From NCBI RefSeq assembly GCF_003703975.1, contig NZ_QTJY01000002.1, forward strand, positions 1 to 64,000: a stretch of DNA of 64,000 nt, given 5' to 3'. The position numbers and the translations under genes are program-made. Source of the stretch: Larkinella soli. GTDB taxonomy: Bacteria > Bacteroidota > Bacteroidia > Cytophagales > Spirosomataceae. Every line of letters starts with the position of its first letter. Position 1 is the stretch's first letter. Shown here in pieces: positions 54,309 through 58,177 of this stretch. Below the pieces are notes generated by a model, which worked only from the letters and a program-made list of their open reading frames with translations, had not been told where the DNA came from and ran no database searches.

Positions 54309-55853
54309 TCAAAACTGATACATCACCTTGAGCCGCACGCCGGCCGACATCTGGTTCAGGCTGTTAGGTCGGGTACGGAAGGGCGTCCAGATGTAGGGGC
54401 TGGCCTGAAACGCCCAGTGGCTTAGCGCTTTTTCAATCCCGATGCTCCACTGCCAACTGTTATAATACTTTTTGTCGCTATCTGAATAGAATTCCTTCTG
54501 CTTGAAGTCATACGGCCCCACCCGATGGGTAAAGCCGATGTACTCACGGGGTTGAAGGCTTAGGCTCGCCCCTACCGCCGGGATGATATACAAACGGTTC
54601 CCCATCGGAAGCCGGTACCCCAGGGTCAGCGGCAGCTGCCAGCTGGCGGCCCTCCGGTTGATGTCCATGATCTCGAATCGCGGGTCGACCGGCACGACAT
54701 TCCCGTACTTGTGCCGGAAATCCATCTTGGTCCGGACGTTGAACTGGATGTCCGTCAGGAACTGATCACCCGAGATTTTAAGCCGGTTCAGCCCTACACC
54801 CAGTACCAGATGCTCACCCACCAGCACCTCTCCGGCCAGCCCGATATTCCACTGGCCCAGGCCCAGCTCCGTACTCGGCCCCAACCGGAACCGCACCAGT
54901 CGGGAGGGTTCTTCGACCACCGGTTGAACGGCAGGAGCGGACGAACTGCCCAGCGCCGAAGCCGAAGGCCGAATGCTCCGTGACTGCCGACGGTAGGTCT
55001 CGACAAAATACGAAGAATCAAAGGAAAGCGGCCGGCCGGCCAAAGGCTCTACCACCAGGGCGGTCCGGTTTTCCGACGGAGCCGCATTGCCGCCGTACAG
55101 GTCCGGTCGGGCATCCCGGGCATCCTCCACGAGGGAGCCGGAGTGGTTAAAGCCGGGATCAGCCCCATTCGGCCGGTTGGGATCCAGTTGGTTAGGAGTG
55201 CGTCCGCTGCCGGGATAGGTCGGCCGGTCGCTTTCGGAACGCAGCGGCTCGCGGACCGTGCCGTTCCGGTCCGCACCGGATGACCCGGTGTTTTGATTGG
55301 GAGCATTCGCAGCAAGGCCACGCTCCGGTTCCGTGACCGGCCGCAGCGGCTCCGCGGGTCCCGAGGGCTGCGAATTCCGGCGGTCAGCCTGGGTTTCCGG
55401 GTAGCGGTTTGTCTGGTCGGCAAACCGTTCAGCCGCGCCGTCGGTGGGCGGAAGCTGCGTTCGGGGCTGGACCCTTCGATCCTCCAAAGGCAAAGAAGGC
55501 AAATCGGCAGAGGGGGTCGCCCCAGCGGCCGGAACCTCTTGAACGATATAGACGGTATCCGGGCGTATTTCGGCCGGCAGCTCCCGCTGAAGGATCGCGA
55601 CCGTATCCCGTAGGGTGTCGACTTTCCGGCTCAGTTCCTGATTGGTCCGGTATTGCCAGACGGAAGTGATGACCAGACCGGCCACCGTAGCCGCACTGAC
55701 GGCAGGCATCAGCCATTGTAGGCCTCCGCCAATGGAGGGCACGCCGTGCCGACGCAGAAATGAACGGAGTTGCAGCCAATCCTTTTCGCGGAAGGGAGGG
55801 TCTACGCCCTCCAGTTTCTCTCGTATAGATTCCCCAAATTTATCTGTTTTCAT
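54309..55853 (-). CDS. Dual membrane-spanning anti-sigma-like protein (Dma type)
   Basis: A 514-residue protein that appears to span both membranes. Start at the ATG at 55853, giving a cytoplasmic N-terminus of about 44 residues (KTDKFGESIREKLEGVDPPF, KDWLQLRSFL) suited to sigma binding. One transmembrane helix follows (about 45-67, LMPAVSAATVAGLVITSVW), a short coiled coil (ELSRKVDTLRDTVAILQREL), then about 240 residues of Pro/Asn/Arg/Gly-rich disordered linker, and a C-terminal outer-membrane barrel (about 330-514) ending in VMYQF. Dual membrane-spanning anti-sigma factors have been described in Bacteroides thetaiotaomicron, where they control outer-membrane vesiculation; the layout here fits. 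Its start overlaps the ECF sigma gene by 14 bases. Confidence 0.85.
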   Translation of the reverse strand: MKTDKFGESIREKLEGVDPPFREKDWLQLRSFLRRHGVPSIGGGLQWLMPAVSAATVAGLVITSVWQYRTNQELSRKVDTLRDTVAILQRELPAEIRPDTVYIVQEVPAAGATPSADLPSLPLEDRRVQPRTQLPPTDGAAERFADQTNRYPETQADRRNSQPSGPAEPLRPVTEPERGLAANAPNQNTGSSGADRNGTVREPLRSESDRPTYPGSGRTPNQLDPNRPNGADPGFNHSGSLVEDARDARPDLYGGNAAPSENRTALVVEPLAGRPLSFDSSYFVETYRRQSRSIRPSASALGSSSAPAVQPVVEEPSRLVRFRLGPSTELGLGQWNIGLAGEVLVGEHLVLGVGLNRLKISGDQFLTDIQFNVRTKMDFRHKYGNVVPVDPRFEIMDINRRAASWQLPLTLGYRLPMGNRLYIIPAVGASLSLQPREYIGFTHRVGPYDFKQKEFYSDSDKKYYNSWQWSIGIEKALSHWAFQASPYIWTPFRTRPNSLNQMSAGVRLKVMYQF

Positions 55854-56451
55854 GGTAACGAACTGGAATCGCTGGATCAGATGGAAAAAGGTGCGGATAG
55901 GCAGACCGGATGGCCTGCTGAAGGCGCTGGCGGGATCGCAGAAAATGGGAACGGATGGTGGCTTCATTACTTTGAAGCACCTCGGCGATCTCCCGCAGGC
56001 TGTAGCCGTCCACCACGTGCATCGAAAACACGGTTCGGTAGGCCGGCGGCAGTTGCTGGACCAGCGCCAGAATCTCATCGGCCGAAATCCGGTCGATCAC
56101 ATTGTCGTCAAACGGTACGTCCTGCCCTGCTTCCAGATTGGTGCTGATATCCAGCTTATGGTATTTTCGGTAATAACTGATGGACGTGTTGATCAGAATC
56201 GTCCTGAGCCAGGCCTTGAAGGGATGCGTTGCATCGTATTGATGAAGCCGCTGAAACACTTTCAGAAAGCTTTCATTCAGTACCTCCTCAGCCTCCTCCA
56301 CGGTGGCTGAATACCGCAGGCAGATACTCTTGGCATACCCGTAAAATTTTTTGAACAATACCCGCTGAGCCTGGGCGTCATGCGAGCGGCAGGCTTCTAT
56401 CACACTCTCCAGGTCGTTCTCCGCAAAAGAGGGGCGCTTTCGGAACAGCAA
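55840..56451 (-). CDS. ECF-family RNA polymerase sigma factor
   Basis: A 203-residue sigma-70 factor of the extracytoplasmic-function group. Region 2: QRVLFKKFYGYAKSICLRYS, EEAEEVLNESFLKVFQRL; region 4: QLPPAYRTVFSMHVVDGYSL followed by REIAEVLQSNEATIRSHFLR. The only workable start is TTG at 56451 (an in-frame stop lies 27 bases upstream and there is no ATG). It overlaps the Dma-like protein gene, so sigma and anti-sigma are made in fixed ratio. Expected to direct envelope-stress genes. Confidence 0.92.
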   Translation of the reverse strand: MLFRKRPSFAENDLESVIEACRSHDAQAQRVLFKKFYGYAKSICLRYSATVEEAEEVLNESFLKVFQRLHQYDATHPFKAWLRTILINTSISYYRKYHKLDISTNLEAGQDVPFDDNVIDRISADEILALVQQLPPAYRTVFSMHVVDGYSLREIAEVLQSNEATIRSHFLRSRQRLQQAIRSAYPHLFPSDPAIPVRYHENR

Positions 56452-56515
56452 GGCCTTGGTAATTAAGTAAATGATTCACTCATGTTTATCCAATACGCCG
56501 GGAACCGGCCGTTCG

Positions 56516-56547
56516 TTGCAGCTCCCGGCCACTTTTTTTTATCTTTT
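56516..56547 (+). promoter_or_regulatory. Possible promoter of the SGNH-like gene
   Basis: TTG at 56516-56518, a 21-base spacer and TATCTTTT at 56540-56547, one base off TAnnTTTG. The leader would be about 90 bases. Confidence 0.4.
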
Positions 56548-56641
56548 TCCGATCCGGCCGAATTCCGCTTTTTTTTCACCGACCCCTGCAACGACAGCCG
56601 GATTCATCGAGTAATGGCGGATAAATCGTCGAACCATTCCG

Positions 56642-57307
56642 ATGAAATTTCAACTGTTAGTCATTGCCGATAGTCTTCATTACGACTACGGGCTGCACTC
56701 CCGGCAGAGTTACATCGACCAGTTCGTCCGCCGGCTGGAGCGGTGCGGCCAGGAAGTGGTGGTGACCTACCATGCTCCGCTGGCGCTGGGGACGGTCGCC
56801 GAAGTGCTGCAGCAGGTTCCTCTCGGTCGCTATGACCTCATCATACTCCAGGTAGCCAACCGCCACCTGCGGCACCCCCGGCTCCCGCTTCGGCCCACGC
56901 CGACGGAACGCCTGAGTGAATATGTCCGGCTGGGCGCACTAAGCATCACCTCCTTCGTCGGGCGCGTTCCGGCTCTTCAGGAAGTGCAGCACCATCTGGC
57001 CGCCATCTTCCGGGTCTTGTGGAGACACCGCCGGAAGGTCATTCTGCTCACCCCCTTCCCGCACCTGGAGCCGGTCAGCGGCTGGCTGCGGAAAAAAGGC
57101 AGTGCCCTGCTGAGGGAAGCAGGAAAACGAAACGGTTTTCGGGTATTCGATACGCAGTGGCTCGTCGAGCCGCGCGAAGAATATTTTATACCCGACGACC
57201 GCGAACGGCTCAACGCCGTCAGTCATGAACTCATCGGTCGACGGCTCTTCGACTTTTATCGGGAAGAACCGACGATCTCCACCGGGCGCCTGACTCTGGA
57301 CACGTAA
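56642..57307 (+). CDS. SGNH/GDSL-like hydrolase
   Basis: A 221-residue cytoplasmic protein. Features of the SGNH fold: a first block (LLVIADSLHYDYG, with Asp-Ser), a second-strand block YDLIILQVANRH, where the usual GxND motif is reduced to VANRH, and a C-terminal FIPDDRERLNAVSHELIGRR with Asp and His in the DxxH-like position (N then H). The Gly and Asn blocks are degenerate, so activity is uncertain. Homologues of this type occur beside glycosylation genes, but no such link is evident here. Confidence 0.65.
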   Translation: MKFQLLVIADSLHYDYGLHSRQSYIDQFVRRLERCGQEVVVTYHAPLALGTVAEVLQQVPLGRYDLIILQVANRHLRHPRLPLRPTPTERLSEYVRLGALSITSFVGRVPALQEVQHHLAAIFRVLWRHRRKVILLTPFPHLEPVSGWLRKKGSALLREAGKRNGFRVFDTQWLVEPREEYFIPDDRERLNAVSHELIGRRLFDFYREEPTISTGRLTLDT

Positions 57308-57364: not shown

Positions 57365-58177
57365 ATGAAAAAACCGCTTTTTATTGCACTCGCATGCATT
57401 GGACTGGGCTTATTTGGATGCGATCAGAATCAGCAGGGAGTGAGTCCGGATGCATCGACCACCACGACCCCCAGTTCGGCAAGGCTGGCGTCCGACAGCG
57501 CCGGTTTCTTCTGCAAACAGAAAATTACCAAAATCGAAACTTCCGCCCTGCCGGCCGCCGTAACCGAATACATCAGCAAGACGTACACCGGAGCGACGAT
57601 CGAGTATGCCGCCAAAGACGATCAGGGTAATTTTCTGGTGGCTATTACCCAGAAAGGAGAGAAGAAGGCGCTGCTGTTCAATGCCGACGGCTCCTTCAAC
57701 GAGGCACTGGCCCTGAAAGGCGACCGGAAGCGCGGGCCGCACGGGGGTGGCGGAAAGAAAGGCAGCCTGACGCAGATCGCCGTGACCGACCTGCCCGCAA
57801 CCATCACCAGCTATATCAATACCAACTACGCGGGAGCGGAAATTAAAACGGCCGCTAAAGACAGTACCCGGGGCTATATCGTCATGATCGTGCTGGATCA
57901 ACAGCCTAAAACGCTGCTGTTCAACAACGACGGCACCTTCAATAAGGAAGTGCAGAAACCCGTCAAGGGCAACTTCACGGCGGTGGCGGTAGCGGACCTG
58001 CCGGCTTCGGTTACCTCGTACGTCACGACGAACTACGCGAACTCGACCATCAAACAGGCCGCTAAAAACGCCGATGGTCAGATTGCGGTCTGGGTGCAGC
58101 CGGCCGGCGGGCGACCGGTGGTGCTGCTGTTCAACGCCGACGGTACCTTCAAACAGGTGGTGAAAGAACGGCACTAA
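57365..58177 (+). CDS. Lipoprotein with three PepSY-like repeats
   Basis: A 270-residue lipoprotein (lipobox LFGC, Cys19). The mature part is three tandem repeats of about 65-75 residues, each running xxxIxxxxLPAxVTxYIxTxYAGAxIxxAAKD, then a beta pair, then LLFNADGTFN. This is the PepSY-like (DUF2874) fold, associated with periplasmic inhibition or calcium-responsive roles. The repeats begin at about 55, 130 and 200. It precedes the S41 protease by 49 bases; PepSY-type domains often accompany proteases as inhibitors or chaperones, so a pair is plausible (inference). Confidence 0.82.
   Translation: MKKPLFIALACIGLGLFGCDQNQQGVSPDASTTTTPSSARLASDSAGFFCKQKITKIETSALPAAVTEYISKTYTGATIEYAAKDDQGNFLVAITQKGEKKALLFNADGSFNEALALKGDRKRGPHGGGGKKGSLTQIAVTDLPATITSYINTNYAGAEIKTAAKDSTRGYIVMIVLDQQPKTLLFNNDGTFNKEVQKPVKGNFTAVAVADLPASVTSYVTTNYANSTIKQAAKNADGQIAVWVQPAGGRPVVLLFNADGTFKQVVKERH

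What the first reader, a model, noticed from the sequence alone, without database searches (positions are those of the whole stretch)
54309..56451. ECF sigma factor fused by overlap to a Dma-type dual membrane-spanning anti-sigma factor
The protein encoded at 54309-55853 has a short cytoplasmic head, one inner-membrane helix, a coiled coil, about 240 disordered residues and an outer-membrane barrel ending in Phe. Its start lies inside the ECF gene, whose only start is TTG. Dual membrane-spanning anti-sigma factors are known from Bacteroides, where they affect vesiculation; a member in a Cytophagales-like genome with a very long Arg/Pro/Asn linker would extend the family. The linker could act as a ruler for the distance between the membranes.
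Basis: partly seen in the sequence, partly recalled or inferred. Interest (0 to 1): 0.8.

Follow-up and report, generated by a model that had tools for sequence, protein, structure and literature searches.

The report
Two-membrane anti-sigma factor with sigma partner
This gene pair looks like a known kind of bacterial alarm, in which one protein reaching from the cell interior to the outer membrane probably holds a gene-switching factor until the outer membrane is disturbed; it is a relative of a system known from gut Bacteroides, here with a longer tether and a different predicted target.

Summary
On the minus strand, 55840-56451 encodes an ECF sigma factor (TTG start); 54309-55853, overlapping it by 14 nt, encodes a 514-aa protein: short two-helix head, one transmembrane/coiled-coil helix, a mostly disordered linker of about 225 residues and an OmpA-like barrel (confident model). 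"Fused" is wrong: two overlapping genes. The Dma reading is supported: the head profile matches a second Bacteroides sigma/anti-sigma group (95.7%) and reaches Bacteroides Dma2 directly only weakly (59%), but well through intermediates (97%, 96%); reversed controls reach 16.2%. A Das2 profile ranks the sigma seventh in this genome, midway between six strong matches and the rest. All seven precede Dma-type heads and five also barrels, so this is one of five such systems here. Added: the sigma start codon is TTG in 26 of 28 testable loci; TGCAAC-N17-CGTA precedes the sigma in 26 of 26 testable loci (one hexamer mismatch allowed); a matching divergent site faces genes that include a PepSY-like lipoprotein in 15 of 20 relatives examined. 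The ruler idea is weakened: same-cell tethers span 170-282 residues. Sigma binding, membrane insertion and the signal are untested. New member of a known kind.

The parts
55840..56451 (-). ECF sigma factor, Das2-like, TTG start (56449-56451)
   Evidence: Pfam; Das2 profile rank 7 of 21 matches in the genome; TTG at the aligned codon in 26 of 28 testable loci, window included
54309..55853 (-). Dma-type anti-sigma factor, 514 aa, start overlaps the sigma gene by 14 nt
55719..55853 (-). Predicted cytoplasmic anti-sigma head, residues 1-45, two helices
   Evidence: low to middling confidence; hhalign to intermediate and Bacteroides heads
55581..55712 (-). Transmembrane helix running into a predicted coiled coil, residues 48-91
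   Evidence: one helix 48-91; hydrophobic stretch by eye
55545..55559 (-). Motif DTVYI (residues 99-103) at the start of the linker; DTVY followed by I, V or L in 27 of 30 relatives
   Evidence: more conserved than the rest of the linker
54903..55580 (-). Linker, residues 92-317, mostly low-confidence and probably disordered, with one predicted helix 280-292
54312..54902 (-). OmpA-like outer-membrane barrel, residues 318-514, read as eight membrane strands, ends in Phe
   Evidence: G505 invariant in 25 sequences
56494..56520 (-). Predicted autoregulated sigma promoter TGCAAC-N17-CGTA
56587..56613 (+). Matching divergent promoter-like site TGCAAC-N17-AGTA
   Evidence: CGTA in the 7 other same-genus loci
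56642..57307 (+). First gene of the divergent side, 221 aa, SGNH-hydrolase-like by eye only (no Pfam match at E up to 0.1)
57365..58177 (+). PepSY-like lipoprotein (lipobox LFGC by eye), predicted second gene of the divergent side
   Evidence: PF11396 E 3e-9; a relative on that side in 15 of 20 loci
56463..56483 (-). Six-codon upstream ORF (MSESFT) between promoter site and sigma start, kept within the genus

Best explanation
This is a Dma/Reo-type signalling pair. The anti-sigma factor holds its ECF sigma factor at the inner membrane with a short two-helix cytoplasmic head, crosses the inner membrane once, runs through the periplasm as a mostly disordered tether and ends as a small barrel in the outer membrane. 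When the outer membrane or barrel assembly is disturbed, the hold is lost, most likely because an unassembled or perturbed barrel leads to loss of the anti-sigma factor. The sigma factor then transcribes its own operon and the divergent genes, including a PepSY-like lipoprotein. Shown here by sequence and prediction: the architecture, homology to the Dma family, and the paired promoter-like sites. Inferred: sigma binding, outer-membrane insertion, the signal and its transmission, and that this sigma factor uses these sites.
For: Barrel and low-confidence linker predicted. A Bacteroides Dma2 control folded the same way gives head helices, a membrane helix, a low-confidence linker and eight strands, at lower confidence (mean pLDDT 55.9). 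Head profiles: window family to intermediates 97.2% (E 3e-11), intermediates to Dma2 96.1% (3e-9), window family to a second Bacteroides group 95.7% (9e-9), window family to Dma2 directly 58.9% (9e-5); reversed heads at most 16.2%. Barrels: 98.5%, 96.8% and, window family directly to Dma2, 86.4%; reversed barrels at most 3.4%. Das2 profile in this genome: six matches at 107-147 bits, the window's sigma at 83, the next at 58.9. All seven are followed by a protein whose head matches at least one Dma-type head profile at 93% or more (the window's by its family profile), and five of the seven by a barrel (86-100% to the best profile for the four others); the two others have none. Promoter: TGC[AC]AC-N17-[CA]GTA toward the sigma gene in 22 of 25 loci and divergently in 19 of 25, against 0.025 and 0.015 loci on average in 200 shuffles (the loci are related, so not independent). 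Literature: in a dma2 deletion the genes of its own operon are among the most changed, and the vesiculation phenotype needs das2 (PMC13088901, passages). P. vulgatus EcfO-Reo is induced by two antibacterial toxins, one of them a BamA inhibitor, and drives NigD lipoproteins (PMC13114119 and PMC9308784, passages).
Against: The window's sigma is the weakest of the seven Das2-like ones, as far below the six as above the rest (24 bits each way). Direct similarity to Dma2 is weak: the full-length comparison found the barrel only, at 68.5%, and the barrel of the second Bacteroides group matches the window family at only 23.5%. Some intermediate heads were trimmed by a rough rule (L042 lost its first residues, L051 kept extra ones). 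A wider use of the promoter pattern is unresolved: exact N17 sites exceed the read-backwards control in all nine genus genomes (161 to 57), but G005, which has no match to this anti-sigma, has 20 to 5, so this sigma cannot explain the excess. In this genome the seven other sites lie within long open frames; one of them is 9 nt before the L160 Dma-type gene. With spacing 15-19 there are 20 sites against 50 in the control. The divergent lipoprotein is not of the NigD family by Pfam. The head-sigma interface was not modelled.
Confidence: 0.72

Rival explanations
1. Tether as ruler: linker length sets the membrane-to-membrane distance at which the sigma factor is released.
For: In eight same-genus orthologues (window included) the tether is 247-257 residues while the linker is only 43% identical; by my count of that list 20 of 30 relatives lie at 245-270.
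Against: The other relatives run from 174 to 378, and the five Dma-type proteins of this one genome have about 170, 177, 214, 249 and 282 (boundaries by eye). A disordered chain of 250 residues has a contour of about 95 nm, so it would be slack rather than a rod (simple polymer estimate).
Confidence: 0.12
2. Barrel as ligand receptor: the barrel loops bind a specific molecule and pass a conformational signal inward, as in Fec-type systems.
For: The barrel is conserved and has loops; some sigma/anti-sigma pairs answer surface receptors (recalled).
Against: No FecR domain was found; a long disordered linker should transmit shape changes poorly (inference); the related Reo is induced by more than one toxin and, in B. 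fragilis, after oxygen exposure.
Confidence: 0.15
3. Ordinary barrel protein that only shares an operon with a sigma factor and does not inhibit it.
For: No binding was shown; the head is short and matches no Pfam anti-sigma domain.
Against: The head, helix, linker and barrel plan next to an ECF gene recurs in 12 of 16 hit genomes outside the family (by eye), and disrupting related Bacteroides/Phocaeicola genes has sigma-dependent effects (passages).
Confidence: 0.06

Closest known systems
Dma2/Das2 (BT_1558/BT_1559) of Bacteroides thetaiotaomicron; compared through loci L148-L159 in Bacteroides and close kin (B. thetaiotaomicron itself was not among them)
   Same: Head, one membrane helix, low-confidence linker, small barrel; overlapping sigma gene (14 nt here, 17 nt in 10 of 12 loci); TTG at the aligned sigma start (11 of 12 by my reading); an upstream site with TGCARC and CGT elements.
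   Different: Tether about 250 against about 121-135 residues; TGCAAC-N17-CGTA against TGCAGC-N16-CGTC in 12 of 12; no DUF4943 match in this genome; a divergent PepSY-like gene instead.
EcfO/Reo of Bacteroides fragilis and Phocaeicola vulgatus
   Same: Anti-sigma factor described as spanning cytoplasm to cell surface; surface lipoproteins in the regulon (PMC13114119 and PMC9308784, passages).
   Different: The targets there are NigD proteins; the neighbouring lipoprotein here is PepSY-like. No Reo sequence was fetched by name.
   Same: Sigma, membrane helix and barrel in one system.
   Different: There the sigma is truly fused and the short head is absent by eye; here two separate genes.

Membership tests
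Dma (dual membrane-spanning anti-sigma) | N-terminal anti-sigma domain related to Dma heads | tested here: met
   Profile comparison with intermediates 97.2%, with a second Bacteroides group 95.7%, directly with Dma2 58.9%; reversed controls at most 16.2%. Binding itself not tested.
Dma (dual membrane-spanning anti-sigma) | Single inner-membrane helix | tested here: met
   One long helix 48-91 with a hydrophobic stretch (by eye); location not shown
Dma (dual membrane-spanning anti-sigma) | Long disordered tether | tested here: met
   Residues 92-271 and 295-310 with pLDDT under 50
Dma (dual membrane-spanning anti-sigma) | C-terminal outer-membrane barrel | tested here: met
   Strands between 320 and 513, block pLDDT 90-97 except one of 75, OmpA-like
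Dma (dual membrane-spanning anti-sigma) | Adjacent sigma factor of the ECF21 family | tested here: inconclusive
   A Das2 profile ranks it seventh of 21 matches, midway between six strong ones and the rest; no ECF21 model was on hand
Dma (dual membrane-spanning anti-sigma) | Inhibits its sigma factor; loss changes vesiculation | not testable with these tools
   Needs genetics
EcfO/Reo | NigD-family lipoproteins as targets | tested here: inconclusive
   No NigD match among the three genes of the divergent side, but the whole genome was not searched for NigD
FecR-type anti-sigma | FecR domain | tested here: not met
   No such match in Pfam at E up to 1

The most novel reading that the evidence does not exclude
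One cell carries five parallel Dma-type tethers of graded length (170 to 282 residues), each with its own sigma factor, so the set could act as an array of envelope sensors with different mechanical thresholds; in this pair a conserved weak TTG start keeps the sigma factor scarcer than its ATG-started inhibitor, making the lock tight until the outer membrane is disturbed.
Probability: 0.12. Interest if true: 0.7.

Novelty: new member of a known kind. Interest (0 to 1): 0.45.

Why it matters
How a cell reads the state of its outer membrane through a single protein is an open question in Bacteroidota. The locus gives a compact testable system outside Bacteroides: a predicted promoter pair, a predicted target lipoprotein, a conserved TTG start and natural tether-length variants in one cell. 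It also indicates that Dma-type proteins are multi-copy in one genome and occur outside the window's class.

Tried and rejected
A wider regulon for TGCAAC-N17-CGTA: 60 regions were fetched, covering 7 of 8 listed sites of G000 (the eighth is the sigma promoter), 17 of 20 of G001, 20 of 21 of G003, 15 of 19 of G006 and 4 of 20 of G005. Most lay inside open frames, but so do some true sigma promoters by that rule, so the rule does not discriminate. An HD-domain gene site found in three fetched relatives (L069, L087, L111) is absent in this genome and overlaps TATATTTG, a housekeeping-type element as I recall it; dropped. Sites before a subtilase-like and other secreted-protein genes were not followed. 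The excess of exact sites over the backward control (161 to 57) stays unexplained; G005, without this anti-sigma, shows it too.

TTG start as a mark of all Dma systems: not upheld. In this genome 4 of 7 Das2-like sigma genes lack an in-frame ATG before region 2, against 4 of 42 other genes with a sigma-70 region 2 (Fisher p 0.009). Without the window's own gene, which prompted the test, it is 3 of 6 (p 0.033). The 42 include at least one that reads as a primary sigma factor. In a second Bacteroides group 12 of 12 loci have an in-frame ATG at the sigma start and 11 of 12 have no overlap. Co-variation of TGCCAC promoter variants: L030 and L034 agree, L024 and L027 do not. A Dma3-type natural fusion as a model of the head-sigma interface: the head is absent by eye. 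I did not build an artificial sigma-anti-sigma fusion for folding. VIA-align was not available.

Full report
What is there. On the minus strand two genes overlap by 14 nt. The first, 55840-56451, is an ECF sigma factor by Pfam. The second, 54309-55853, is a 514-residue protein; 50 of 99 genomes drawn as relatives, own genome included, have a match, many of them partial. Of the eight other same-genus genomes, seven have a match over all 514 residues and G005 has none.

Anatomy. AlphaFold2 on 25 of 30 relatives gives helices 5-15 and 23-36, a long helix 48-91, low confidence at 92-271 and 295-310, a short helix 280-292 and strands between 320 and 513 with block means of 90-97 except one of 75. 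DSSP lists ten strand elements; I read them as eight membrane strands with one extended hairpin. Foldseek puts OmpA membrane domains on top (E 5e-8). Mean pLDDT is 64.9 and pTM 0.44, so only the barrel is firm. Pfam sees the barrel weakly (PF13505 E 0.0075, below its cut-off). G505 is invariant and Y512 nearly so in 25 sequences; 19 of 30 relatives end in Phe (my count of the list). Twenty-seven of 30 carry DTVY followed by I, V or L after the coiled coil; residues 96-106 are 86% identical within the genus against 43% for residues 107-317.

Membership. As a yardstick I sought the Dma2 operon through its neighbour DUF4943 (7 of 295 genomes) and read the genes around it in two genomes: sigma, Dma-type protein, DUF4943 protein, further protein. 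The Dma-type protein then brought 12 loci: 10 with a Bacteroides title, one Caecibacteroides, one Candidatus Bacteroides. B. thetaiotaomicron was not among them, and DUF4858 was not tested. PMC13088901 (abstract and passages) gives the family plan: N-terminal anti-sigma domain, membrane helix, disordered tether, C-terminal barrel, with an adjacent ECF21 sigma. Full-length comparison of the window family with Dma2 found only the barrel (68.5%, E 5e-5). Heads alone gave 58.9%; through 12 intermediate loci from outside the family 97.2% and 96.1%; against a second Bacteroides group of 12 loci 95.7%; reversed heads at most 16.2%. Barrels gave 98.5%, 96.8% and, directly to Dma2, 86.4%, with reversed barrels at most 3.4%, but only 23.5% to the second Bacteroides group. 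The Dma2 control model has the same plan with eight strands, at mean pLDDT 55.9. I take this as membership by homology, with the direct link weak.

The partner. The genome has 49 matches to sigma-70 region 2, at least one of which reads as a primary sigma factor. A Das2 profile finds 21: six at 107-147 bits, the window's at 83, the next at 58.9. The window's is therefore a borderline member of the Das2-like set. Downstream of the six others, all six proteins have heads matching a Dma-type head profile at 93% or more; four of the six have barrels (L160 87.4%, L162 86.0%, L164 97.9%, L165 100% to the best profile) and two do not (L161, L163). Pfam supports the barrel above its cut-off only in L160, weakly in L165 and L162, and not in L164. 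The two ECFs ranked next precede proteins of 113 and 140 residues.

Distribution. The A1 profile hit 20 of 395 genomes of the phylum; 16 lie outside the window's family. In 12 of the 16 the hit is, by eye, a head, helix, linker and barrel ORF next to an ECF ORF; in 4 it is not. Seven of the 12 are in another class. The profile misses Bacteroides and the own paralogues, so this is a lower bound.

Promoters. A TGCAAC-like hexamer, 17 nt, then CGTA stands upstream of the sigma gene in 26 of 26 loci with enough sequence, one hexamer mismatch allowed; four loci had too little sequence. A stricter pattern occurs toward the sigma gene in 22 of 25 loci and divergently in 19 of 25, with at most one locus at any other spacing from 11 to 23, against 0.025 and 0.015 loci on average in 200 shuffles. 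The loci are related, eight of them from one genus, so they are not independent. In the window the sites are 56494-56520(-) and 56587-56613(+), the latter with AGTA; with one mismatch allowed the window has three such sites, about what shuffles give (2.93), so the case rests on conservation and position. On the divergent side lie an SGNH-like gene by eye (no Pfam match) and a PepSY-like lipoprotein (PF11396). A PepSY relative lies there in 15 of 20 relatives and an SGNH-like one in 12 of 20; in the window's own row the longest-ORF rule hid the PepSY gene. Bacteroides Das2 loci have TGCAGC-N16-CGTC in 12 of 12. Genome-wide use of the pattern stays unresolved, as told under evidence against.

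Start codon. The codon aligned with the sigma start is TTG in 26, GTG in 1 and ATG in 1 of 28 testable loci, window included. In the Bacteroides Das2 loci TTG stands at the aligned place in 11 of 12 by my reading; two of these also have an upstream in-frame ATG. The trait is not general: the second Bacteroides group has ATG in 12 of 12. That TTG keeps sigma scarce is inference.

Linker. From membrane helix to barrel, eight same-genus orthologues have 247-257 residues (SD 3.5); 30 relatives have 174-378. Five proteins in this genome have 170-282 (boundaries by eye). Dma2 has about 121-135 by a rough rule that worked for 10 of 11. Length is kept within the genus but is not a fixed membrane ruler.

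Mechanism. Inferred: the head sequesters sigma, the barrel reports on the outer membrane, and loss of a properly assembled barrel frees sigma. Support from relatives: Reo is described as spanning cytoplasm to surface and likely sensing outer-membrane stress, and the pair is induced by a toxin and by a BamA inhibitor (PMC13114119 and PMC9308784, passages). The step from barrel to head is not shown in anything I read.

Novelty. Searches listed papers on such anti-sigma factors only in Bacteroides and Phocaeicola, judged from titles, abstract starts and, for four papers (PMC13088901, PMC13114119, PMC9308784, PMC12596196), passages. The 2024 Dma1 paper is not held, so what it says on distribution could not be checked. 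I file this as a new member of a known kind.

Noticed in passing
L160 (G000:C12:203500-207800), L162, L164, L165: Four further sigma/Dma-type pairs in the same genome, with tethers of about 214, 177, 170 and 282 residues.
   Followed up: partly
L161 and L163: Two Das2-like sigma genes followed by proteins with a Dma-type head and a membrane helix but no barrel (280 and 191 aa).
   Followed up: partly
window 56463-56483 (-): Six-codon upstream ORF MSESFT just before the sigma start; start and stop kept in all eight same-genus loci (codons 2 and 4 vary); very near the presumed transcript start.
   Followed up: no
window 55545-55559 (-): DTVYI motif at the start of the linker (DTVY plus I, V or L in 27 of 30 relatives); could be a docking or cleavage site. 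Dma2 linkers carry a different conserved stretch (like SVSVTVSMSFS, by eye).
   Followed up: partly
G000:C12:204699-204725 (+), L061: An exact TGCAAC-N17-CGTA site inside another Das2-like sigma gene, 9 nt before the start of its Dma-type partner; chance or cross-regulation.
   Followed up: no
L105 (G003:C14:633000-636000): A second SGNH-like paralogue in a relative with its own TGCAAC-N17-CGTA site upstream.
   Followed up: no
nine same-genus genomes: Exact TGCAAC-N17-CGTA sites exceed the backward-read control in all nine (161 to 57), also in G005, which lacks this anti-sigma.
   Followed up: no
L202 and L203 (G736): Natural sigma-barrel fusions of the Dma3 type, two in one genome.
   Followed up: partly
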